A stretch of 64,000 nucleotides of DNA from Anaerocolumna aminovalerica (lineage in GTDB: Bacteria; Bacillota; Clostridia; Lachnospirales; Lachnospiraceae). The stretch lies in NCBI RefSeq assembly GCF_900115365.1, contig NZ_FOWD01000021.1:1-64000 (forward strand), written 5' to 3'. A program made the translations under genes and the position numbers. Positions 1 to 61,097 of the stretch are shown one piece after another. A model generated the notes under the pieces. The model was not told the DNA's origin, ran no database searches, and was given only the letters and a program-made list of their open reading frames with translations. How positions within the stretch are numbered: the first letter of the stretch is position 1; every line of letters starts with the position of its first letter.

Positions 1-159
1 TTCAATTATTTCTATCCCTTTCCTTTTACACAACATACTCAATATGTTCGCTACATCTTGTTTTATTTGTCCATATACTATCTGTCTCCTGTATTTTGGC
101 GCAAAAACAAGATGGTATTTACATTCCCACTTCGTGTGTGATAAACTATTCTTATCCAT
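1..159 (-). CDS. tnpA: IS200/IS605-family transposase TnpA, 5' part only
   Basis: The first 53 codons of a Y1 (HUH) single-strand transposase; the rest runs off the left edge. The translation begins MDKNSLSHTKWECKYHLVFA and continues through APKYRRQIVYG, the characteristic N-terminus of the IS200 group. The ATG at 159 is preceded by AGGAGG at 7-nt spacing. TnpA excises and inserts the element as single-stranded DNA; the catalytic HUH and Tyr residues lie outside the window. The gene points the same way as the TPP riboswitch upstream, so the element sits where the riboswitch target gene would be expected. Confidence 0.9.
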   Translation of the reverse strand, partial: MDKNSLSHTKWECKYHLVFAPKYRRQIVYGQIKQDVANILSMLCKRKGIEIIE

Positions 160-300
160 TTTGGATACCTCCTATGCTATTTTTGTGTGGTTGGCGAACC
201 TACACTTAGTATAACATAGGAGGTTTTTAAACTTGAAGCTAAAGCTAATTGGGAACACACCTGCATAGCAGGTGGTTTATTTTTATTGTGACACAACAAA
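160..300 (-). mobile_element. Left end of the IS200-like element with subterminal hairpin
   Basis: Untranslated leader of the transposase. It holds a perfect 7-bp hairpin, CACCTGC-ATA-GCAGGTG (258-274), of the kind IS200/IS605 ends use for recognition by TnpA. The outer boundary is not marked by inverted repeats, as expected for this family, and is placed near 295-300 because the riboswitch terminator and its T-run finish there. Insertion next to a rho-independent terminator is a known habit of some IS200 relatives; applying it here is inference. Confidence 0.6.
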
Positions 301-303
301 AAG

Positions 304-326
304 ACCTTTCCGGTAACCGGAAAGGT
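304..326 (-). terminator. Rho-independent terminator of the TPP riboswitch
   Basis: An 11-bp stem (ACCTTTCCGGT / ACCGGAAAGGT) with a one-base loop, followed on the minus strand by CTTTTTG. It lies about 60 nt after the aptamer, the usual place for a ligand-controlled terminator. A T-run also follows on the plus strand, so it may work both ways. Confidence 0.8.
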
Positions 327-387
327 TTTGTATATATCCAAAATACAATTCACATTCATAAACTATATGAGGAGACACTATATACAT

Positions 388-571: not shown

Positions 572-729
572 ATTTTGGCACTTTTAACAATGCCAAAATT
601 GTTTTATAGTATCAGCAAAGAACAGTGGCTGAATAAAAAAAGCTGGAGAATAGGTTATTCTGCCACTTATACTCCTGTACAAATTGCATCAATATTAAAA
701 AGCGTTAAATCGCTGGAATCGAGGTCAAT
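572..729 (+). other. Structured intergenic leader upstream of the S-component gene
   Basis: A 9-bp inverted repeat ATTTTGGCA / TGCCAAAAT (572-599) is followed by a segment that can fold as GTGGC...GCCAC around a small AGAATA-GGT-TATTCT hairpin, and then by the leader cassette at 701-729. It does not match the THF, preQ1 or FMN riboswitch patterns I can recall. Function unknown; no gene recognised in it. Confidence 0.35.
701..729 (+). repeat. Hairpin plus ribosome-site leader cassette (copy 1)
   Basis: AGCGTTAAATCGCT (a small hairpin) followed by GGAATCGAGGTCAAT and directly by the ATG at 730. The same arrangement, a GC-stem hairpin with a TAA-type loop and then GGAATNGAGGTNAAN-ATG, precedes minus-strand genes starting at 12652, 16758, 32276 and 36502. 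Hairpin-to-ATG distance is 15 nt here and in three of the others. Confidence 0.7.
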
Positions 730-12652: not shown

Positions 12653-12820
12653 TTTAACCTCGATTCTGACGCTTTAGCGCTTTTTAATTACGATAGCAAT
12701 TTGTGCCCCAGCACAAAAGCTTGTTTTTTCAACCTAGCTCCCATCGCATGCAGCATCTGCTTGCAGATGTGGCATTGCCACAAATCAGAGTGTGAATTAT
12801 GCATTTCAATAATTCACACT
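12653..12820 (-). repeat. Palindromic leader array R1 with hairpin-ribosome-site cassette
   Basis: Read toward the permease gene, this leader contains consecutive short hairpins: GTGTGAATTA/TAATTCACAC (12819-12790), TGTGGCA/TGCCACA (12782-12768), CATCTGC/GCAGATG (12769-12754), TTGTGC/GCACAA (12716-12701) and the cassette hairpin CGCTAAAGCG (12679-12670) with GAGGTTAAA before ATG 12652. Related copies occur at 60816-61097, 19929-20045, 16759-16875 and 37930-38035. A ribosome-site-like GGGAG precedes a 14-codon frame starting TTG-AAA-AAA-CAA (12732-12688). Confidence 0.75.
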
Positions 12821-12829
12821 AACCTCCAT

Positions 12830-16758: not shown

Positions 16759-16875
16759 CTTAACCTCTATTCCGTGCTTTAGCACAATTTAATAATGACA
16801 GTAATTTTGTAAAGCCGCAAATTACCGGTTGAAAAACTTGTTTTTCAACTATCCTCCTTTCAAATAGTAGTTGAA
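16759..16875 (-). repeat. Palindromic leader array R2
   Basis: Hairpins in order toward GH20: GTTTTTCAACTA/TAGTTGAAAAAC spanning 16840-16875, GTTGAAAAA/TTTTTCAAC (16828-16849), GTAATTT/AAATTAC (16801-16825) and the cassette hairpin GTGCTTTAGCAC (16774-16785). AAAGGAGG stands four bases before a TTG that opens a frame of 8 codons (16848-16822). The left edge of the upstream broken kinase gene falls inside this array. Confidence 0.7.
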
Positions 16876-19928: not shown

Positions 19929-20045
19929 ACTAACCCTCCATGCTTCCAACACCTGCGAATTTGGGCGCAAGCATAATATTTGCAAAGCGAATTGTTTTAC
20001 AATTCACTTTGTGAAAAATCTTGATTTTTCACACTTCTCCCTTTT
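19929..20045 (-). repeat. Palindromic leader array R3
   Basis: Leader of the regulator gene. Hairpins: GTGAAAAATC/GATTTTTCAC (20011-20032), TTCAC-TTT-GTGAA (20003-20015), ATTG-TTTTA-CAAT (19991-20003), and the segment GCGCCCAAATTCGC near 19955-19968. Bases 19988-20018 match 60874-60904 with few changes, so R3 and R4 share a common origin. GGGAG precedes an 11-codon frame opening GTG-AAA-AAT-CAA (20032-19997). Confidence 0.75.
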
Positions 20046-29222: not shown

Positions 29223-30941
29223 TTACTTCTTAATCTTAAATTTTAATACCGTATCGTTTAATATCGCTGCAAGTTCTGCCTGACTTTGGGTTGTGGACGC
29301 TACCTGCTGTATCGCTATGGAAGCTTCACTTAGGTTATTTTTAATAACTTCTGCTTCTTCATTAGATTTTTGTGTGGTTACCGCTATATTTTGTATAGCT
29401 GCACTTACTTGATCAATAGAAGCTGCTAGTTCTTCTGTCATGGCTGCAATCTCTTCAGACATCTGGCTGGTATTATCAGAATCTTTATAATACTGCTTTC
29501 CAACATTTCCGAATTCTTCAAATTTAAGATCAACATTTTCGTTAATGAACTTTAAGGTTTCATTACCGTTTAAAGATAAATTTCCAAATGCTTCCTGTAC
29601 TTTTAATATTGTATCCTGAATAGCAGATACTGCCTGTGAAGACTGTTCAGCCAGCTTCCTTATCTCATCTGCAACTACAGCAAAACCTTTCCCCTGCTCT
29701 CCTGCTCTTGCAGCTTCTATAGCCGCATTTAAAGAAAGTAAATTCGTCTGCTCTGCTATACTTGCTATGGTTTCTGCCATAACACGGATATTATCTACTA
29801 CTTTTCCATCTTCAATAGCTTTTAATACCTTCTCACGTTTTTCAGCATATAAAGCTCTAACCTCTTCGATGGCTTCAGTTCCTTTTCTTTCAACTTCCCT
29901 TGCCCTTTGTTTCGCTTCGCTGGCATTACTGCTGCCTTCTATTGCTTTATCGGATAATACATTAATACTGGAGTCAACTTCTTCTACAGAAGCAGTTATT
30001 TCTTCTGAAGTTGCACTGGTATCTTGAATACCCACTACTATATGTTTCACTGCATTATCTATGTATTCAACTTTTGCAGTAATTTCTTCAGCAGTAGCAG
30101 AAAGTTCTTGACTTGAAGCACTCATTTCCTGAGAATTTTCCATAATTAGTTTTACTAAGTCACTTACATTATCCTGTGCTTTATTTAATGCAGCACTAGT
30201 TTGTCCAAACTCATCTTTTCTCTTCATGATAATAGGAACAGAGAAGTCATATTGAGATAATCTGGTGGCAAGTTCTCTAATTTTGACCAATGCGGAGTTT
30301 ATATTGTGTATCATAATAAAACTTACAAATAATGCAACTAATACTCCTATTACTCCAGAGATTGTCATTATCATGTTGGAACTTACATATATACCTTGGT
30401 TTTCCTCATTAAATGCTTTGGCGTGATCAAAATTAGCTTGAATCATAGTATCTAAATTAGTCATCATAGCTACTCTGACCGCAGATAGTTTTTTATAGCT
30501 TTCTACTGCGTTAGTGTAATCACCGCTATCCAGAGATCTTCTTATGGCTAGCCTTTGATTTCGATACTCTTCAAACTGACTTTGGAAAATCGGAAGGATT
30601 TTTTGTTCCTTCTCTGTTAAGTATAAAGATTGATAACTTTCAAGAAGCTCCATGATCTGGGATGTATTGGATTCAATCTCGTCTAATAATTTAGATTTAA
30701 CTGACTCATCTTTTACATATATAAGCTTCAAAAAATTGCTTTCGATTTCCACAAGATTTATATTTATTTCTTTTAGTTTACTGACTCCATGTACTTTATC
30801 CTGATACATATGCTGTGAGTTATTTGCTACCCTTTCTAAAGCACTGGTGGCATAAAACCCGATTATAAAAATGATCACAGCTAATATAAGGTAAGAAAAG
30901 ATCAACTTCGTTCTTACCTTTAAATTATTAAAAAACTTCAT
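29223..30941 (-). CDS. Methyl-accepting chemotaxis protein 1
   Basis: A 572-residue chemoreceptor. One helix near the N-terminus, a roughly 160-residue extracellular four-helix-bundle sensor (4HB_MCP-like, no Cache motif), a second helix near 190-212, HAMP, then the signalling hairpin with tip [26 protein letters not shown]. It signals through CheW/CheA to the flagellar motor. A clostridial variant of the signalling domain is present, with FINENVD-KFEEFG-QYYKDSD before the last methylation helix. Located between the LIV/transketolase and LIV/DHA kinase operons, so it may sense their substrate. Closely related to the receptors at 54701 and 56705. Confidence 0.93.
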
Positions 30942-31349: not shown

Positions 31350-32276
31350 TTATTGTAAAAATTTTATAATATCTTCATATACACTTTTAGAATCCAGCCG
31401 GTAACACTCCAATAATTCCTCCGGAGTTCCTGACTGACCAAATTGATCCTGTACTCCAAGTTTCTTTATTCTATAACCGCCTTCTTCCAAAAGCACTTCT
31501 GCTACAGCATCACCAAGCCCGCCTATTACAGAATGTTCTTCTAAGGTAATAACATTTTTGCATTTTGCTGCATAGGTTTTTACAATTTCTTTATCTATAG
31601 GTTTAATTGTATGGATATTTATTATTGCTATATCTATTCCATCTGATTCTAACCTGCAAGATGCTTTTAAAGCGCTGTCGACCATGGTGCCGCAGGTAAA
31701 AATTACTGCATCTTTACCATCTTTTATTACATTGGCCTTACCGATCTCAAATGGCATATCCTTATATACTGCTGTTGGCATTCTGGACAATCTTACGTAA
31801 ACAGGGCCCTCTATTTCTGCTGCTGCTTCGATGGCTTTGTAAGTTTCATTGGCATCGCAGGGAACGATTACAGTCATTCCAGGCAATACACGCATAAGTG
31901 CAATATCTTCTATTGTTTCATGGCTGCCGCCGTCTCCCCCTAAGGTGATTCCGGCATGAGTCATAGCCAGTTTTACATTATTACCGGGATAACAGATTGA
32001 GTTTCTTACCATTTCATAAGCTCTTCCGGTTCCAAACATGGCAAAGGTGCTTATAAAAGGAATAAATCCTGCATCTTCCAGTCCTACTGACATACAAGTC
32101 ATATTCGCTTCAGCGATTCCCACATTAAAAAATCTTTCCGGATATTTCTCAGCAAAATTACAGGTCATAGTTGCATGAGACAGATCCGCATCTAATACGA
32201 CTATTCTTTTATTTTTTTCACCAAGTACTGCAAGGGCTTCACCATATGCGGCTCTGGTTGCAATTAGATTTGACAT
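31350..32276 (-). CDS. Transketolase, C-terminal subunit
   Basis: A 308-residue half-transketolase holding the pyrimidine-binding and C-terminal domains: RFFNVGIAEANMTCMSVGL (with the Glu that activates thiamine), THAGITLGGDGGSHETIEDIA, and NVITLEEHSVIGGLGDAVAEVL. With the N-subunit it forms an alpha2beta2 thiamine-diphosphate enzyme that moves a two-carbon ketol unit between sugars. The start overlaps the end of the N-subunit gene by 13 bp and uses the leader cassette (hairpin 32305-32292, GGAATCGAGGTTAAA, ATG). Split transketolases beside transporters often serve special sugars; acceptor here unknown. Confidence 0.92.
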   Translation of the reverse strand: MSNLIATRAAYGEALAVLGEKNKRIVVLDADLSHATMTCNFAEKYPERFFNVGIAEANMTCMSVGLEDAGFIPFISTFAMFGTGRAYEMVRNSICYPGNNVKLAMTHAGITLGGDGGSHETIEDIALMRVLPGMTVIVPCDANETYKAIEAAAEIEGPVYVRLSRMPTAVYKDMPFEIGKANVIKDGKDAVIFTCGTMVDSALKASCRLESDGIDIAIINIHTIKPIDKEIVKTYAAKCKNVITLEEHSVIGGLGDAVAEVLLEEGGYRIKKLGVQDQFGQSGTPEELLECYRLDSKSVYEDIIKFLQ

Positions 32277-33109
32277 TTTAACCTCGATTCCGGTGCTTTA
32301 GCACCTCCCAACTCTGTTAATGCTTTTTCCAGTTCTTCATCATTTAGAGACTTTCCATGCCAGCCTACAACATTCTCCATAAAGGATACGCCTTTACCTT
32401 TAATGGTATGGGCTACAATACATTTTGGTTTTCCATGAAAGGGTGCATCTAAAGCTTCTATAATTTGTTCCAGATCATTGCCGTCTGCTACATCATATAC
32501 GGTAAATCCAAAGGATTCATATTTCCTTCCAATATCGTCCACCCCCATAACCTGTTCACAAGAACCATCTATTTGTAAACCATTATTATCAACAATAACA
32601 GTCAAATTGTCTAGTTTATAGTGACTGGCAGCCATAGCCGCTTCCCACACAATACCTTCCTGCAGCTCTCCATCACCAAGCACTGCATATACATGAACAC
32701 CGTTATTTAATGTTTTTGCCCCCAGAGCCATACCCGTTGCCACAGAAACTCCTTGTCCCAAAGAACCGGTTGAGGCATCCACCCCGGAAAGTTTTTTCTT
32801 ATCGGGATGTCCTTGCAGGGGGCTATGGAGCTTACGTAATGTTTTTAGCATTTTCTTGTCAAAATATCCTTTATCCGCTAATACAGCATATAGAATAGGT
32901 GCTGCATGTCCTTTAGAAAGTACGAAACGGTCTCTGAAGGGATCTTTTGGATTTCCCGGGTTTATATTCATTTTGTAATAGTATAGAGATACCATAATTT
33001 CTACCATAGATAAAGAACCGCCGGGATGTCCGGAACCAGCTTCATAGATTTCATTTAAAGTATCCACTCTTAATTGGTTACATTTTTCTTTTAAACTTAC
33101 TATATTCAT
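32264..33109 (-). CDS. Transketolase, N-terminal subunit
   Basis: A 281-residue thiamine-diphosphate-binding half: SGHPGGSLSMVEIM, KGHAAPILYAVLADKG, DASTGSLGQGVSVATGMALG, and the cofactor motif GDGELQEGIVWEAAMAASHY with IVDNNGLQIDG. ATG 33109 (MNIVSLKEK) has GGGAG upstream; the frame stays open 15 codons further through a variant of the leader hairpin (TGCTAAAGCA). The last 13 residues (AKAPESRLKCQI after ELGG) are encoded by the cassette that serves the C-subunit gene, so the cassette seems to have lengthened this protein. It lies in the operon of the LIV-1 transporter. Confidence 0.92.
   Translation of the reverse strand: MNIVSLKEKCNQLRVDTLNEIYEAGSGHPGGSLSMVEIMVSLYYYKMNINPGNPKDPFRDRFVLSKGHAAPILYAVLADKGYFDKKMLKTLRKLHSPLQGHPDKKKLSGVDASTGSLGQGVSVATGMALGAKTLNNGVHVYAVLGDGELQEGIVWEAAMAASHYKLDNLTVIVDNNGLQIDGSCEQVMGVDDIGRKYESFGFTVYDVADGNDLEQIIEALDAPFHGKPKCIVAHTIKGKGVSFMENVVGWHGKSLNDEELEKALTELGGAKAPESRLKCQI
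32277..32305 (-). repeat. Hairpin plus ribosome-site leader cassette (copy 4)
   Basis: GGTGCTAAAGCACC hairpin, then GGAATCGAGGTTAAA and ATG 32276. Identical in hairpin to the copy at 36503-36531. It lies wholly inside the preceding coding region. Confidence 0.75.
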
Positions 33110-35632: not shown

Positions 35633-36502
35633 TTATTCCATTACCTCCTCATTGAAAATTCCCTTTGGCATTAATATCATAACAATAATCAAAATACCAA
35701 ATGTAATGAAATCTTTATAATTGGAGGTCAGATATGCAGAAACAAATGTCTCTAAAAATCCAAAGAATACACCGCCAATAATTGCTCCGAACATATTACC
35801 GTATCCGCCCACTACGGCTCCGGCGAAAGCTTTTTGCCCTATCATGGCACCCATGGACATATAAACACCAAATACCGGCCCCACTACAACACCAATTGCA
35901 CCAGCCAGCATAGAGGCAATTCCCCAGGCAGTTCCCTTTGTAAGAGGTACATTGATTCCAAGTGCACTGGCTGCTACTTCATCTTGAGCAGCGGCTCTCA
36001 TGGATATGCCGAACTTTGTTTTTGTTAAAAATAATTGGAGGGCAACCATAATAATAATTCCCACTCCCAGTACTAGTAAATTCTCCGGTGCAACGCTAAC
36101 TCCAAAAATTTTAACGGATGCAGAGTTGAAAATTGCAGGGAACTGTAAAACATTACTTCCCCATGTTAACATGGAGGAATTTTGTAAAATCATTGATATG
36201 GATATGGTACATAAAATTATGTAAACCGTCTGAGCACCTTTTTCGATTAATTTAGTAACCATAACCCGCTCTATAAACATACCCAGCATAAACATAATAA
36301 TCATAGTTAATAACAAAGCAATTATGAAAGGTAATTGAAGATATTTATAAAACGTGATTCCTAAAAATGCACCAAACATAAGCATGTCGCCCTGTGCCAG
36401 GGACATAAGCCCTGAGGCTTTATATATTAAGCCATATCCGATTCCAACTACACCGTATACACTGCCAATCATAAGTGCACCGATAATTAATCGAATAACC
36501 AT
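35633..36502 (-). CDS. livH: LIV-type ABC transporter permease (LivH), LIV-1
   Basis: A 289-residue permease starting VIRLIIGALMIGSVYGVVGIGYGLIYKASGLMSLAQGDMLM, with MRAAAQDEVAASALGINVPL and a C-terminal ILMPKGIFNEE. The start codon is served by leader cassette copy 5 (hairpin 36531-36518, GGAATTGAGGTCAAT, ATG). The gap to its binding-protein gene holds a long inverted repeat. Confidence 0.92.
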   Translation of the reverse strand: MVIRLIIGALMIGSVYGVVGIGYGLIYKASGLMSLAQGDMLMFGAFLGITFYKYLQLPFIIALLLTMIIMFMLGMFIERVMVTKLIEKGAQTVYIILCTISISMILQNSSMLTWGSNVLQFPAIFNSASVKIFGVSVAPENLLVLGVGIIIMVALQLFLTKTKFGISMRAAAQDEVAASALGINVPLTKGTAWGIASMLAGAIGVVVGPVFGVYMSMGAMIGQKAFAGAVVGGYGNMFGAIIGGVFFGFLETFVSAYLTSNYKDFITFGILIIVMILMPKGIFNEEVME

Positions 36503-36531
36503 ATTGACCTCAATTCCGGTGCTTTAGCACC
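36503..36531 (-). repeat. Hairpin plus ribosome-site leader cassette (copy 5)
   Basis: GGTGCTAAAGCACC, then GGAATTGAGGTCAAT and ATG 36502; hairpin-to-start distance 15 nt. Confidence 0.75.
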
Positions 36532-36555
36532 TTAAAATAATAACCTAAAATCATC

Positions 36556-37929: not shown

Positions 37930-38035
37930 CACTCAGTATCCCATCTGTTTACAGATGAGACACTTACAAATAAACAGGTTGAAAGAATCCTGTACAGATT
38001 CTTTTTTATTTTATTTTCTTTCAACCTTTGTACCT
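37930..38035 (-). repeat. Palindromic leader array R5
   Basis: CATCTG-TTTA-CAGATG (37942-37957) followed by the linker GAGACACTTACAAAT resembles the CATCTGC...GCAGATG plus TGGCATTGCCACAAAT segment of R1. Next comes a nested hairpin GGTTGAAAGAATC...GATTC...CTTTCAACC (37978-38028). Array position, between promoter region and binding-protein start, matches the other arrays. Confidence 0.6.
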
Positions 38036-41769: not shown

Positions 41770-41826
41770 TTTCAGTGACTCTGCTAATCATTTTATCATT
41801 ATATCATCTCTATTTCATCATTTACC

Positions 41827-41924
41827 TTAACTTTGCTTTTTCTTATTGCTTAGGCCAAGTAATCTCATCTCTTAACTCCTTAGCCGCCTGTAAACACCAG
41901 TAAGGATTTCTTAGAAGTTCTCTT
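41827..41924 (-). pseudogene. 98-bp remnant of an Old Yellow Enzyme gene 3' end
   Basis: Matches 49521-49618, the last ~33 codons of the intact OYE gene, at 94 of 98 bases and in the same orientation. It encodes the same RNPYWCLQA-KELRDEITWPKQ stretch, but nothing upstream of it resembles the enzyme. Similarity stops sharply at both ends. The two copies form direct repeats bracketing the glucan unit 41976-48999. Confidence 0.88.
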
Positions 41925-49153: not shown

Positions 49154-49515
49154 ACTATAATATAACTAATTCATCTGATTCATTACTAGAAATGCTTTCA
49201 TTCTCTATAAGTGTCGCTCAAGGAGCACTATCTTATGGATTCCCGGAATAATAGAGCAAAGCTGAATTATGCATTTTTAATGAATTTACTTTAAGAATTA
49301 CATTCCTTTACTTACAGATATATTTTTGTTGATATTTCAATACCTTATGTACTATCGTAAGCACCTATTTCCATATATGCTGTTTCCTCTTGGAATTGGA
49401 CCAAAGCTCCTTTTGTGGACATATCGCATCTTCAAGCAGATGCGATATGCAATGGATGTAAAAATGAAGAGTATTAGTATCCTTGATAACTGTTCATTTA
49501 AAGTTTAACATTTTT
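49154..49515. other. Non-coding stretch with an 11-bp hairpin
   Basis: No gene recognised. CATATCGCATC and GATGCGATATG (49420-49449, 8-nt loop) form a perfect stem without a T-run. This stretch lies just inside the right-hand direct repeat of the glucan unit and could be island-boundary DNA. Confidence 0.4.
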
Positions 49516-50541
49516 TTATTTTAACTTTGCTCTTTCATATTGCTTAGGCCAAGTAATCTCATCTCTTAACTCCTTAGTCGCCTGTAAACACCAGTAAGGA
49601 TTTCTTAGAAGCTCTCTTCCTAAGAATATGAAATCTGCCCTTTCGTTCTGGACAATCTCTTCCGCCATGGAAGGAGAGGATATTAGTCCCCCTGCCATTA
49701 CCGGCAGTCCGGTAATCTGCTTTATTGTTTCGGCAAATTTTACCTGATAGCCCGGATATGCCCTTGGTACCACATTAATTACGCCGCCTGAACTAACATT
49801 AATCAGATCCAGTCCTTCTTCTTTTAAATCTTTGATCATGTTGGCTACATCAACATCATGGTTTCCTTCTTCCCCATATTCTTCAGCAGATACCCTGAGG
49901 ATAACAGGCTTTTCTTCAGGCCATACTGTTTTTATAGCCTGTAAGATTTCTTTTAAGAATCTGCTTCTGTTCTCTGCATTTCCACCGTACTCGTCGGTTC
50001 TCTTATTGGTTAATGGAGAAAGGAACTGATTGATAAGATAACCATGTGCTCCATGAAGTTCTATAGTATCAAAGCCTGCCAGATCAGCCCTTCTTGCTGC
50101 CTCTTTAAAAGCCTCTGCTACATTTTTAATATCTTCCTTTGTCATTTCTACCGGAACTCTGTAATCATCACTATAGGCAATGGCACTAGGTCCGATATTG
50201 GGTTCTGACATAGCTTCTGATTTTCTTCCTGCATGGCCTAATTGGATGCCCACTTTTGATCCATGGGCTTTACATAAATCCACAATCTTTTTCAGTCCTT
50301 CTACCTGTTCTTCCTTCCATATCCCAAGGTCATGTTCAGAGATGCGGCCTCTTGCTTCTACTGCTGTTGCTTCCAGTATAATAAGTCCCACTCCGCCTAC
50401 TGCTCTGGCGGCATAATGAGTAAAATGCCAATCATTTGCATGACCATTGGTATCAGCACTGAACATGCACATTGGGGCCATTACAACTCTGTTTTTTAAC
50501 TCCAGATTCTTAATCTGATAAGGTGTAAATAATTTAGACAT
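49516..50541 (-). CDS. namA: NAD(P)H:flavin oxidoreductase, Old Yellow Enzyme (YqjM/NamA type)
   Basis: A 341-residue FMN enzyme that reduces activated C=C bonds of enones and similar electrophiles with NAD(P)H. YqjM-class features are visible: FTPYQIKNLELKNRVVMAPMC with the redox-tuning Cys25, IQLGHAGRKS, the substrate-binding His pair in ELHGAHGYLINQFLSPLTN, and GGNAENRSRFLKE. The end VMAGGLISS...FIFLGRELLRNPYW binds FMN phosphate. The last 98 bp are duplicated at 41827-41924. Physiological substrate unknown, probably detoxification or redox balance. Confidence 0.93.
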   Translation of the reverse strand: MSKLFTPYQIKNLELKNRVVMAPMCMFSADTNGHANDWHFTHYAARAVGGVGLIILEATAVEARGRISEHDLGIWKEEQVEGLKKIVDLCKAHGSKVGIQLGHAGRKSEAMSEPNIGPSAIAYSDDYRVPVEMTKEDIKNVAEAFKEAARRADLAGFDTIELHGAHGYLINQFLSPLTNKRTDEYGGNAENRSRFLKEILQAIKTVWPEEKPVILRVSAEEYGEEGNHDVDVANMIKDLKEEGLDLINVSSGGVINVVPRAYPGYQVKFAETIKQITGLPVMAGGLISSPSMAEEIVQNERADFIFLGRELLRNPYWCLQATKELRDEITWPKQYERAKLK

Positions 50542-54700: not shown

Positions 54701-56413
54701 TTAAATTTTAAATCTTAATACTGTATCGTTTAGTTGTGCTGCAAGTTCCGCCTGACTTTGTGTTGTAGCTGCTACCTGCTGTATTGCTCTGGTGGTTTCA
54801 CCGAGGCTGTCTTTTATCAGTTCTACCTCTTCATTTGATTTTTGAGCAGTTACTGCAATATTTTGAGTGGCAGCGCTGACCTGATCTATGGACGCAGCCA
54901 GTTCTTCCGACATGGAGGCTATTTCCTCAGACATTTGACTGGTTATATCGGAATCTTTATAATATTGGATTCCAATTTCTCCGAATTCTTCAAACTTTGG
55001 ATCCACATTCTCATTAATGAACTTTAATATATCATTACTATTACCAGACAAGTTACTAAATGATTCCTGTACTTTCAATATGGTATCCTGAATTGCGGAT
55101 ACTGCATGGGAAGATTGTTCCGCCAATTTTCTTATCTCTTCTGCAACTACAGCAAATCCTTTTCCCTGTTCTCCTGCTCTGGCAGCTTCAATGGCTGCAT
55201 TTAATGAAAGTAGATTAGTCTGTTCCGATATACTTGCAATAGTTTCTGCCATAACCCGAATATTATCAACTACTTTTCCGTCTTCAATGGCTTTAAGCAC
55301 ACCCTCTTGTTTTTCAGCATACAGGGCTCTTGCTTCCATTATGGCATCCGTTCCTTTTTTCTCAACTGACCTTGCCCTTTTTTTCGCTTCACCAGCATTA
55401 TTGCTGCCTTCTCTTGCTTTATCGGATAATACGTTTATACTGGAATCCACCTCTTCTACGGAAGCGGTAATTTCTTCTGATGTTGCACTGGTATCCTGTA
55501 TTCCTACCACAATATGTTTTACTGCATTATCTATGTATTCTACTTTAGATGTCAACTCTTCCACAGTAGCAGAAAGTTCCTGGCTGGCCGCACTCATCTC
55601 CTGTGAATTCTCCATAATTAATTTTACTAAACTACTTACATTGTCCTGTGCCATATTTAACGCAGATACAGTCTGTCCAAATTCATCTTTTCTCTTCATA
55701 TCAATGCGGGCGGAGAAATCATATTCCGATAATCTGGTGGCAAATTCCCTGATTTTAGTCAATGCAGAACTCACATTTCCTGACATAATAAGGCCGAGTA
55801 TAATGGCAATTACTAATCCCAAAACACTTAAAACAATCGTTAGCCTATTGGCATTGACAAATATGCCGTGGTTTTCTGCATTAAATGATTTTGCATTCTC
55901 TAAATTAGCTTTAATCATAATATCTAAGCTGCTTAACATAGCAGTTCTGATTTCGGATAATCCTTCATAAAGTTCTTCTGCCTTTGTATATTCTCCATTA
56001 TTCACATATTCTATTAACTTTTTTCTTTGATTCCTATATTCCTCAAGCTGGCTTTTAAAAAGGGGCAGATTCTTTTGTTCCGTCTCTGTTAAAAATAGCT
56101 TCTCATAACTTTCAAGGAGCTGTGTATTCTCAGATGTATTTAACTGTATTGTATTAATCAGTGCTGATTTTTCTGCCTCATCTTTTACATATATCAGCTT
56201 TAATAAATCCTTTTCCACTTTTTCCACATTTATATGCATTCCTTTTAATTGACTGATGCCTTGTACTTTATCCACATACATATAATTAGAATTGGCTGCT
56301 ACTTTTTTTAATGAATTGGAGGCAAAGAAACCAAGTATTGGTATCAGTACAGCCAAGGCAATATAAGAAATAATTAACTTTGTCTTTACTTTGAAATTAC
56401 TAAAAAACGACAT
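54701..56413 (-). CDS. Methyl-accepting chemotaxis protein 2 (4HB sensor)
   Basis: A 570-residue receptor: [23 protein letters not shown] helix, four-helix-bundle sensor, second helix near 190-212, HAMP, signalling tip [26 protein letters not shown]. Together with the genes at 29223 and 56705 it forms a paralogue set: signalling halves are nearly identical, sensor bundles diverge, and all share the [20 protein letters not shown] insert. Probable tandem duplication with the next gene. AGGAGG precedes ATG 56413. Confidence 0.93.
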
Positions 56414-56704: not shown

Positions 56705-58417
56705 TTAAATCTTAAATTTTAATACTGTATTGTTTAATTTCGCCGCTAGTTCAGCCTGGTTTTGTGTTGTGGATGCTACTTGCTGTATTGCATTGGAAGT
56801 TTCATCCAGACTGCTCTTTATCACTTCCACATCTTCATTTGATTTTTGTGCAGTTACTGCAATATTTTGAATAGCAGCACTGACTTGATCAATGGATGCA
56901 GCCAGTTCTTCAGACATGGCTGCTATTTCTTCAGACATTTGACTGGTAATATCGGAATCCTTATAATACTGGGTTCCTACATATCCGAATTCTTCGAACT
57001 TTGGATCCACATTCTCATTAATGAACTTTAACGTATCATTACTATTATCTGATAAATTACTAAATGCCTCCTGTACTTTTAGTATAGTCTCCTGAATAGC
57101 CCATACTGCGTGGGAAGATTGTTCTGCCAGTTTTCTTATCTCTTCTGCAACTACAGCAAATCCTTTTCCCTGTTCTCCTGCTCTGGCAGCTTCAATGGCT
57201 GCATTTAGTGAAAGTAAATTGGTCTGTTCCGAAATGCTTGCTATAGTTTCTGCCATAACCCGAATGTTATCAACTACTTTTCCGTCCTCAATGGCTTTTA
57301 ATACACTCTCTCGTTTTTCAGCATACAGGGCTCTGGTCTCCGTTATAGCATCGGTTCCTTTTTTCTCGATTTCAGTTGCTCTTTTCTTTGCTTCTCCGGC
57401 ATTATTGCTGCCTTCTCTTGCTTTATCCGACAATACGTTGATGCTGGAGTCTACTTCCTCTACGGAAGCGGTAATTTCCTCTGATGTTGCACTGGTATCC
57501 TGTATTCCAACTACAATATGTTTTACTGCATTATCTATGTATTCTACTTTAGATGTCAACTCTTCCACTGTAGCAGAAAGTTCCTGGCTGGCTGCACTCA
57601 TTTCCTGCGAATTCTCCATAATCAACTTTACTAAATTGCTTACATTATCTTGTGCCACATTTAATGCAGAAACGGTCTGTCCAAACTCATCTCTTCTCTT
57701 CATGTCAATACCAGTGGAGAAATCATATTCTGATAATCTGGTTGCAAATTCCCTGATTTTAGCCAATGCAGAGCCCATATCTCTTGACATAAGGACTCCT
57801 AGTAGAATTGCAACTACCAGACCCACAATTGCCAATGCCAGCATTAACACATTGGAACTAAGATATATGGCACGGTTTTCTTCATTAAATGCCTTCGCAT
57901 TCTCTAAACTGGCTTTAACCATAATATCCAGGCTGCTTAGCATAGCTGTTCTGATTTCAGATAAGCTTTCATAATGTTCTTCTGCTTTTGTATAATCTCC
58001 CTTATTTACATAATCCAATAATACTTTTCTTTGATTTCTATATTCCTCAAGCTGGCTTTTAAAAATAGGCAGATTCTTTTTCTCTGTTTCCGATAGAAGT
58101 AACTTCTCATAACTACTAAGCAGTTGTGTGTTATCTGATGTATTTAACTGCATTGTGTTAATCAGTCCAGATTTTTCTGCCTCGTCTTTAACATATATTA
58201 GTTTTAATAAGTCTCTTTCCACTTCCGCTATATTTATATGTATTCCTTTTAATTGGCTGACTCCTTGTACTTTATCCAGATACATATAATTGGAGTTATC
58301 TGCTACTTTCTTTAATGAATCGGAGGCAAAGATCCCAATTATGGTTATCAATACAGCCAAGGCAATGTAAGAAATAATTAATTTTGTTTTTACTTTTAGA
58401 TTTCTTAAAAACATCAT
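56705..58417 (-). CDS. Methyl-accepting chemotaxis protein 3 (4HB sensor)
   Basis: A 570-residue receptor, tandem paralogue of the preceding gene with the same layout: N-terminal helix, four-helix-bundle sensor, second helix, HAMP, signalling hairpin. Start set at ATG 58417 ([12 protein letters not shown]), 9 nt from AGGAGG and colinear with its paralogues; the frame is open 18 codons further. One change near the hairpin tip ([10 protein letters not shown] against [10 protein letters not shown] in receptor 2) is worth noting because this region contacts CheA/CheW. Confidence 0.92.
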
Positions 58418-58925
58418 GAAATGTTTCCTCCTAAGGTATATTACTTTTCGTTTTAACCTTATGAATATCATAAAATCAACTTTGTATTATCCGTATTATG
58501 ATTGTGGAATATATGAAATAATCTTTGAAATGATGAATTCATTATTAGGTTATTGAAAATATTAACATAGAATAATTTCCCAATCTTTATTGTACACTAG
58601 TATGTAAGATAATGCAAATACTTTTTGAATAATTTGTTGATTAAAATACTAAATAAGTTGATTTCACCTAAGTGTGTTCAACTCAAATTGTTATTAAATA
58701 AAAAAAGCTTCATTAATTTCTTAGTTAAAAAGTTTCTTTTAGGTTCGTTGTAAATTTTTATGGTTCGTTCCTTGTTTGAAGTTGCAACCGGGAAGTAATA
58801 TCACTTATAATGTAATTGATTTTCTTTTGTATTTATATTAAACTCAAATAGTGATTTCATATACATTACCCCTCCTATAGGGAGTACGCCCAGAAGTGGG
58901 ACTTGAAAGGAGTGTAATAATTACA
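58418..58925. other. Intergenic region with promoter of the third LacI gene
   Basis: Mostly AT-rich. On the plus strand TTGCAA (58782-58787), 18-nt spacer and TATAAT (58806-58811) form a likely promoter. Two GGTTCGTT direct repeats 20 bp apart (58742, 58762) lie just upstream and could bind a regulator. The leader ends with small CCC/GGG hairpins and AAAGGAG. No gene recognised. Confidence 0.5.
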
Positions 58926-60815: not shown

Positions 60816-61097
60816 AGTTGTTCTCCATTCCGCCATTACCCGAATTGGGGCAATCGCATAATAATTTCAAATTAAATTGTTTTACAATTCACTTTGTGAA
60901 GAATTCCTTTATTTTTCACGCAAACTCCCGTTGCATGCTTCATCTGTCATGCAAGAAGTGACACTGCTACAAATCAGAGTGTGTATTCTGCATTTCAGTA
61001 ATTCACACTAATTCCCACAGATGCTGCATCTGCTTACAGATGTGACACTGCCGCAAATCAGGGTGTGTTTTATACATTATTAATAATTCACACTTAG
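60816..61097 (-). repeat. Palindromic leader array R4 inside the dhaK-dhaL junction
   Basis: The longest array. Two tandem units each carry a GTGTG...CACAC hairpin (61063-61093 and 60979-61008) and a following CAAATCAG linker. The distal unit has CATCTG-CTTA-CAGATG (61027-61042). Then come GTGAAAAAT, the TTCAC-TTT-GTGAA and ATTG-TTTTA-CAAT hairpins shared with R3, and TTGCCCCAATTCG. GGGAG precedes a 15-codon frame opening GTG-AAA-AAT-AAA (60919-60872). Confidence 0.78.

What the first reader, a model, noticed from the sequence alone, without database searches (positions are those of the whole stretch)
60816..61097. Family of palindromic arrays in mRNA leaders
Seen: five arrays (12653-12820, 16759-16875, 19929-20045, 37930-38035, 60816-61097) are built from a shared set of short hairpins: GTGTGAATT/CACAC, CATCTG/CAGATG, TGTGGCA/TGCCACA, GTTGAAAAA/TTTTTCAAC, TTCAC-TTT-GTGAA and ATTG-TTTTA-CAAT. 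All lie just before a gene and all face the same way as it. The downstream genes are unrelated. Loop and linker sequences such as CAAATCAG are kept along with the stems. This looks like a non-autonomous repeat family, or an RNA module, that shapes leaders.
Basis: partly seen in the sequence, partly recalled or inferred. Interest (0 to 1): 0.72.

Follow-up and report, generated by a model that had tools for sequence, protein, structure and literature searches.

The report
Mobile hairpins carrying a ribosome-binding site
This bacterium and its relatives carry a family of short hairpin elements, over a hundred copies of one module in this genome, that insert exactly between a gene's ribosome-binding site and its start codon and bring a replacement ribosome-binding site, so they appear able to land in front of essential genes without silencing them.

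Summary
In detail: all five arrays exist, face their downstream genes and are built from shared modules. The genome is an Anaerocolumna (Lachnospiraceae), with at least 136 matches to one module (M2) and at least 40 to another (M1).

The arrays are chains of 85-110 nt mobile elements. Each is two or three hairpins followed by a Shine-Dalgarno (SD) sequence. In a recently active subfamily (M2b; most full copies 94-100% identical), 43 of 45 copies examined sit exactly 2 nt before an ATG, nearly all with a separate SD-like sequence on their left. Orthologous empty sites show clean insertion of 89 nt at SD..TA^A-N-ATG, with no target loss and no duplication beyond a shared TA/TTA. The element's 3' end (GAGGTTA) sits where the new SD should be; pheS, pheT, gatA and aspS all start this way.

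The family also occurs in three other Lachnospiraceae genera and in human-gut contigs. It matches no Rfam family, and my literature searches found no described repeat with this target. How it moves is open: no resident reverse transcriptase correlates with activity, and the resident IS200 elements have different ends and targets. Single-strand (HUH-type) transposition, reverse transcription and short-homology copying all remain possible.

The parts
60816..60925 (-). M3 element, ends ATGGAGAACAACT directly before the dhaL ATG (60815-60813)
   Evidence: G013 ortholog lacks it
60925..61012 (-). M1 element, second of the array
61008..61097 (-). M1 element, first of the array, just after the dhaK stop codon
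12734..12823 (-). M1 element, inserted right after a native-looking SD (GGAGGTTA)
12653..12734 (-). M2 element with its SD (GAATCGAGGTTAAA) before the permease ATG (12652)
16759..16851 (-). M2 element between native AAAGGAGGATA and the GH20 gene ATG (16758)
19929..20034 (-). M3 element before the sigma-54 activator ATG (19928)
37937..38027 (-). M4 element upstream of a periplasmic binding protein gene; a separate SD lies between it and the ATG (37912)
640..727 (+).
32277..32304 (-). 5'-truncated M2 (last hairpin plus SD) right after GGGAG, before the ATG at 32276
36503..36545 (-). 5'-truncated M2 before the ATG at 36502; left end approximate
49395..49462 (+). orphan M1/M4-like copy followed by an ATG but no gene

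Best explanation
The arrays are chains of small non-autonomous mobile elements (85-110 nt; modules M1-M4). Each has a hairpin at its 5' end, one or two more hairpins, and an SD at its 3' end. SHOWN: they are inserted in one orientation, at a site read as SD..TA^A-N-ATG between the native SD and the start codon, without target loss and without duplication beyond a TA/TTA that the target and the element end share. SHOWN: the element's 3' end leaves an SD at a fixed distance from the ATG, while the native SD ends up at least one element length upstream and can decay. INFERRED: the gene is then translated from the element's SD, which lets insertions before essential genes survive and lets elements stack, the newest next to the ATG. 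INFERRED, weakest step: movement uses a structured single-stranded intermediate acted on in trans. I favour an HUH/Y1-like single-strand DNA transposition (about 0.35) over reverse transcription (about 0.25), short-homology template switching guided by the shared SD..ATG (about 0.25) and another site-specific recombinase (about 0.15).
For: Recent copies: M2b in G010 (32 matches) and G014 (24), most full copies 94-100% identical. Empty sites: e.g. G014 ATAGGAGTTA[GGTTGAAA..AGAGGTTA]AAATG against G011 ATAGGAGTTA|AAATG, with several more of the same kind, and lineage-specific insertions in the own genome against G013. Position: 43 of 45 copies exactly 2 nt before an ATG; 20 of 20 exact M2 ends near starts have GAGGT + 4 nt + ATG; P about 3e-33 if only SD..TA were recognised. 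TA at the junction in about 88% of full copies against 15% of ordinary starts. Element SD before normally essential genes pheS, pheT, gatA and aspS. Hairpins kept with double changes between subfamilies. Stacking with M2 nearest the ATG.
Against: No mobilising enzyme was found. The resident Y1 (IS200) elements have unrelated ends and sit at terminators. A typical short HUH target would not explain the fixed distance to the ATG. No expression data show that the element's SD is used. Some copies (49395-49462, C43:197934, the 37930 array) do not fit the rule exactly.
Confidence: 0.8

Rival explanations
1. Retrotransposition: an RNA ending in the element is copied by a reverse transcriptase into the target, its GAGGUUA(NNAUG) end annealing at SD..ATG (SINE-like).
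For: 5'-truncated copies with intact 3' ends are common (about 9 of 32 matches in G010); several still join an SD-like flank directly, and L184 has clean empty sites in G012 and G014. Breaks at positions 25 and 54 lie just 3' of the first two hairpins. Copies with swapped 5' hairpins look like template switches.
Against: No RVT_1 gene in G011 or G013 (81% complete) and only a fragment in G014, all rich in elements. Loss of the 3' SD would be selected against, so the bias to 5' loss needs no RT; one truncated own copy has a full-length ortholog in G013, so deletion also occurs.
Confidence: 0.25
2. Short-homology template switching or gene conversion: donor SD-element-SD-NN-ATG and target SD-NN-ATG share short sequences at both ends, and replication or repair copies the element across, with no dedicated enzyme.
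For: Gives one orientation, fixed spacing and clean junctions at once; the right end of each subfamily resembles its targets.
Against: Homology is weak at several targets (e.g. AAAAGGGATA, GGATACTGGTTC); the TA^A preference is not expected from homology alone; it does not explain why only hairpin families spread.
Confidence: 0.25
3. Conserved cis-regulatory RNA (riboswitch or attenuator) inherited with its genes.
For: Structured, in leaders, same strand as the gene, next to the SD.
Against: Unrelated downstream genes; precise presence or absence at orthologous genes; pairs decay without compensation within M1; no relevant Rfam match even at relaxed thresholds.
Confidence: 0.04
4. MITEs of a DDE transposase with TA duplication (IS630/mariner type).
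For: TA on both sides of the element.
Against: No terminal inverted repeats: M2b begins GGTTGAAAAAT and ends AGAATAGAGGTTA; one orientation only; ATG at a fixed distance.
Confidence: 0.04

Closest known systems
REP/REPIN elements mobilised by RAYT (TnpA-REP) and non-autonomous IS200/IS605 derivatives
   Same: Small, palindromic, high copy, no terminal inverted repeats, no target duplication (general knowledge; families discussed in PMC3733652, PMC8266576)
   Different: Those I know of are not placed between SD and ATG, not bound to one orientation relative to genes, and carry no SD; no matching Y1 enzyme found here
Pneumococcal BOX, RUP and SPRITE repeats (PMC3049150)
   Same: Small structured mobile repeats; BOX is modular and can alter neighbouring leaders
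   Different: Over-represented between convergent genes, the opposite of these; no SD..ATG target; RUP is linked to IS630 inverted repeats
ERIC and Correia elements
   Same: Transcribed hairpins near genes that can affect mRNA processing (PMC3049150, background section)
   Different: From my own knowledge: they have terminal inverted repeats and occur in both orientations; neither replaces the SD
Mobile group II introns
   Same: Site-specific insertion without duplication (own knowledge)
   Different: These elements are about 90 nt with two or three simple hairpins, carry no reading frame, and match no Rfam intron family
IS110 / bridge RNA recombinases (PMC11208160)
   Same: From my own knowledge: two-sided target recognition around a 2-bp core without inverted repeats, which would fit SD-TA-ATG
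   Different: No IS110 recombinase was sought or found here; an 89-nt element carries no gene

Membership tests
REP/REPIN mobilised by RAYT | Short palindromic high-copy repeat | tested here: met
REP/REPIN mobilised by RAYT | GTAG or CGTC tag at the foot of the palindrome (PMC3733652) | tested here: not met
   hairpin foot is preceded by target-derived TTA/ATA and starts GGTTG or GTGTG
REP/REPIN mobilised by RAYT | Cognate RAYT gene in the genome | tested here: inconclusive
   Y1 proteins in the own genome belong to IS200-type elements with other ends; other genomes not searched for Y1
IS200/IS605-derived non-autonomous element | No duplication, insertion 3' of a short target that the right end mirrors | tested here: met
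IS200/IS605-derived non-autonomous element | Ends shared with an autonomous element | tested here: not met
   resident IS200 ends and targets differ; only the own genome's elements were checked
IS630/mariner MITE | TA duplication | tested here: inconclusive
   TA on both sides, but it can equally be target plus element end
IS630/mariner MITE | Terminal inverted repeats | tested here: not met
   M2b ends are not inverted repeats
BOX/RUP/SPRITE | Enrichment between convergent genes, no fixed orientation | tested here: not met
Known structured RNA family (Rfam 15) | Score above gathering threshold | tested here: not met
SINE-like retroelement | 5' truncation with intact 3' end | tested here: inconclusive
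   seen but selection for the SD gives the same bias, and deletion occurs
SINE-like retroelement | Reverse transcriptase present where elements are active | tested here: not met
IS110 bridge-RNA elements | IS110 recombinase and bridge RNA with matching loops | not tested

The most novel reading that the evidence does not exclude
A class of bacterial mobile element whose insertion machinery recognises the translation start site itself (SD plus TA plus ATG at fixed spacing), perhaps by RNA or single-strand base pairing, and which leaves a working SD so that insertions are nearly neutral; gene starts act as a safe harbour and leaders are rewritten on a genome-wide scale.
Probability: 0.45. Interest if true: 0.9.

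Novelty: new variant of a known kind. Interest (0 to 1): 0.76.

Why it matters
Targeted elements usually avoid harm by landing outside genes (terminators, tRNAs, other repeats). These land at the point where an insertion should silence the gene, and supply the missing signal. They appear to have replaced the SD of many genes in one genome, including essential ones, so they change how leaders, SD spacing and start-codon annotation should be read in Lachnospiraceae. If the target is recognised through SD and ATG together, the responsible machinery would be of interest for inserting sequence at gene starts.

Tried and rejected
Rfam at gathering and relaxed thresholds: nothing relevant. IS200 ends as source of the modules: rejected, different ends and targets. 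A resident reverse transcriptase as mobiliser: not supported, absent or fragmentary in three element-rich genomes. Plasmid or viral origin: no plasmid match, no exact viral-contig match to three patterns. The 12 'phage' hits carry no annotation; the one whose ORFs I listed looks bacterial (Fur-like regulator, zinc ABC transporter), so they are probably gut bacterial contigs. Selection keeping the fold of each copy: not supported for M1. Truncation as proof of reverse transcription: weakened by the full-length G013 ortholog of one truncated copy. Literature searches found no described family with this target; the library lacks most subscription papers.

Full report
WHAT IS THERE. The five arrays exist as described. 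Read in the mRNA sense they are chains of modules, each ending in an SD-like string. M1 is about 87 nt, from GTGTGAATT..AATTCACAC to ATGGGAGCTAG. M2 is about 94 nt, from GGTTGAAAAAC..GTTTTTCAACC to GGYGCTAAAGCRCC-GGAATCGAGGTTA. M3 is about 105 nt and ends ATGGAGGGTTAGT. M4 is about 110 nt and ends CAATGGGTGTAAT.

ORGANISM AND COPY NUMBER. The genome is 4.62 Mb. An exact scan of about 85,000 species genomes with an M1 core found 13 stretches, all in Anaerocolumna or in Clostridium sp. KNHs205, which falls in the same genus here. The own genome has at least 40 M1 and at least 136 M2 matches. M1 occurs in 13 of 15 genus genomes, and M2 is also abundant (85 matches) in the close relative G013.

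MOBILITY AND EMPTY SITES. A subfamily, M2b (89 nt), is 94-100% identical among most full copies in G010 (32 matches) and G014 (24 matches). Twenty G014 copies were fetched, and their downstream genes were looked up in G012, G011 and G010. At the best-conserved sites, filled and empty alleles differ by exactly the element. Examples: ATAGGAGTTA[GGTTGAAA..AGAGGTTA]AAATG against ATAGGAGTTA|AAATG; GGAGGATA[..]AAATG against GGAGGATA|AAATG; AAAGAGGTTA[..]AAATG against AAAGAGGTTA|AAATG. No target base is lost. The only repeated bases are the TA or TTA shared by the target and the element's right end. For own-genome copies, G013 gives empty sites such as GACGGAGGACAAT|ATG (the 640-727 copy) and GGGAGCCTA|ATATG (a copy on contig 55). 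The dhaK-dhaL junction of G013 lacks the whole 60816-61097 array.

POSITION. Of 45 M2b-type copies examined, 43 lie exactly 2 nt before an ATG. One exception is a copy followed by another element; the other lies 3 nt before an ATG. In 446 kb of the own genome all 20 exact M2 ends near a start have four bases between GAGGT and ATG, and two exact motifs lie elsewhere. Of 27 CM hits in that sample, 21 end exactly on a called start codon and two are followed by another M2 copy. Of the other four, one is aspS, whose start my simple gene caller had misplaced, one continues in frame into an ORF, one leads into a short ORF, and one is an orphan. Ordinary SD-to-ATG spacing in this genome is broad (mostly 4-12 nt from GGAG, mode 8). 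If only SD..TA were recognised, about 15% of insertions would have the 2-nt spacing, so 43 of 45 has P about 3e-33, using own-genome starts as background. Larger spacings would bring the element's SD nearer the commonest natural spacing, so selection for translation is unlikely to produce the fixed value. The start codon therefore seems to be part of what is recognised, directly or through homology. The two bases before the junction are TA in about 88% of full copies against 15% of ordinary starts; in relatives the empty site has TA in roughly two thirds of cases (my reading).

CONSEQUENCE FOR THE GENE. The native SD ends up one or more element lengths upstream and can decay: GGGAGCCTA in relatives against GAGAACTTA in the own genome. 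The own-genome genes pheS, pheT, gatA and aspS (NCBIfam) have M2 ends directly before the ATG. These genes are normally essential, so the element's GAGG is presumably their working SD. This is inference; no expression data were available.

CHAINS. In the mixed arrays I read, M2 or M2b is nearest the ATG and M1 or M4 lies upstream (12653-12823; L005, L007, L008, L013, L014, L069, L082, L189, L192). At one contig-43 site the own genome has a full M2 on the ATG side of a remnant that G013 has alone. New copies thus seem to enter next to the start codon, using the previous element's SD as the new left flank.

STRUCTURE. Most full copies fold better than shuffles. Within M1, 20 of 21 pairs show no compensatory double change, as expected for elements decaying after insertion. 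Between subfamilies the hairpins are kept while the sequence changes: in an alignment of M2, M2b and gut relatives, 5 of 14 pairs have double changes. The fold therefore seems to matter for the active element rather than for each host gene.

DISTRIBUTION. A model of M2-type elements finds them in three other Lachnospiraceae genera: G156 (21 matches), G202 (13) and G044 (1); the four read lie directly before an ATG. The family survey scored only 17 candidates per genome, so absence from the other genomes means little. Twelve human-faecal contigs deposited as phages carry 72-82% identical elements; the six inspected lie before likely starts.

HOW IT MOVES. Not settled. For single-strand transposition: hairpins at or near the ends, no terminal inverted repeats, no duplication, one orientation, and a right end that copies the target. 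Against: no matching Y1 enzyme in the own genome, and a short target would not fix the distance to the ATG. For reverse transcription: 5'-truncated copies that still join an SD-like flank, breaks just 3' of hairpins, and hybrid 5' hairpins. Against: no RT gene in G011 or G013 and only a fragment in G014, and selection alone would spare the 3' end. For short-homology template switching: it explains spacing and orientation without an enzyme. Against: weak homology at several targets and the TA^A preference. IS110-type recombinases were not tested.

COMPARISON. REP/REPIN, BOX/RUP/SPRITE, ERIC and Correia elements are the nearest kinds. None met in my searches is described as targeting the SD-ATG interval or carrying an SD, and the pneumococcal repeats are enriched between convergent genes, the opposite of what is seen here. 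I file this as a new variant of small bacterial interspersed elements, with a target and a self-supplied SD that I have not seen described. The literature check covers only open-licence papers.

Noticed in passing
window 1-330; loci L023-L032: The window begins inside a multi-copy IS200-type element (Y1 transposase) that breaks the assembly at many contig ends; its copies sit next to T-rich terminator-like sequence.
   Followed up: partly
window 41821-41924 and 49515-49618: Two 94% identical 104-nt stretches, probably the 3' end of a duplicated gene, one beside the orphan element at 49395-49462.
   Followed up: no
window 29223-30941, 54701-56413, 56705-58471: Three paralogous genes of about 570-590 codons with 72-84% identical stretches.
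   Followed up: no
L034 (G013), beyond dhaL: An array of imperfect repeats of the type GATTCTTCACCTTCGGTTCAGAATGACACC downstream of the dhaL gene, an unrelated repeat family.
   Followed up: no
G012 genome: 24 reverse-transcriptase matches in near-identical groups, probably active group II introns in Clostridium sp. KNHs205.
   Followed up: no
L099 (G012): An M2b copy inserted between an SD and an ATG that opens only a three-codon ORF (ATG ATA ACG TAA), suggesting that the sequence pattern rather than gene expression is what is targeted.
   Followed up: partly
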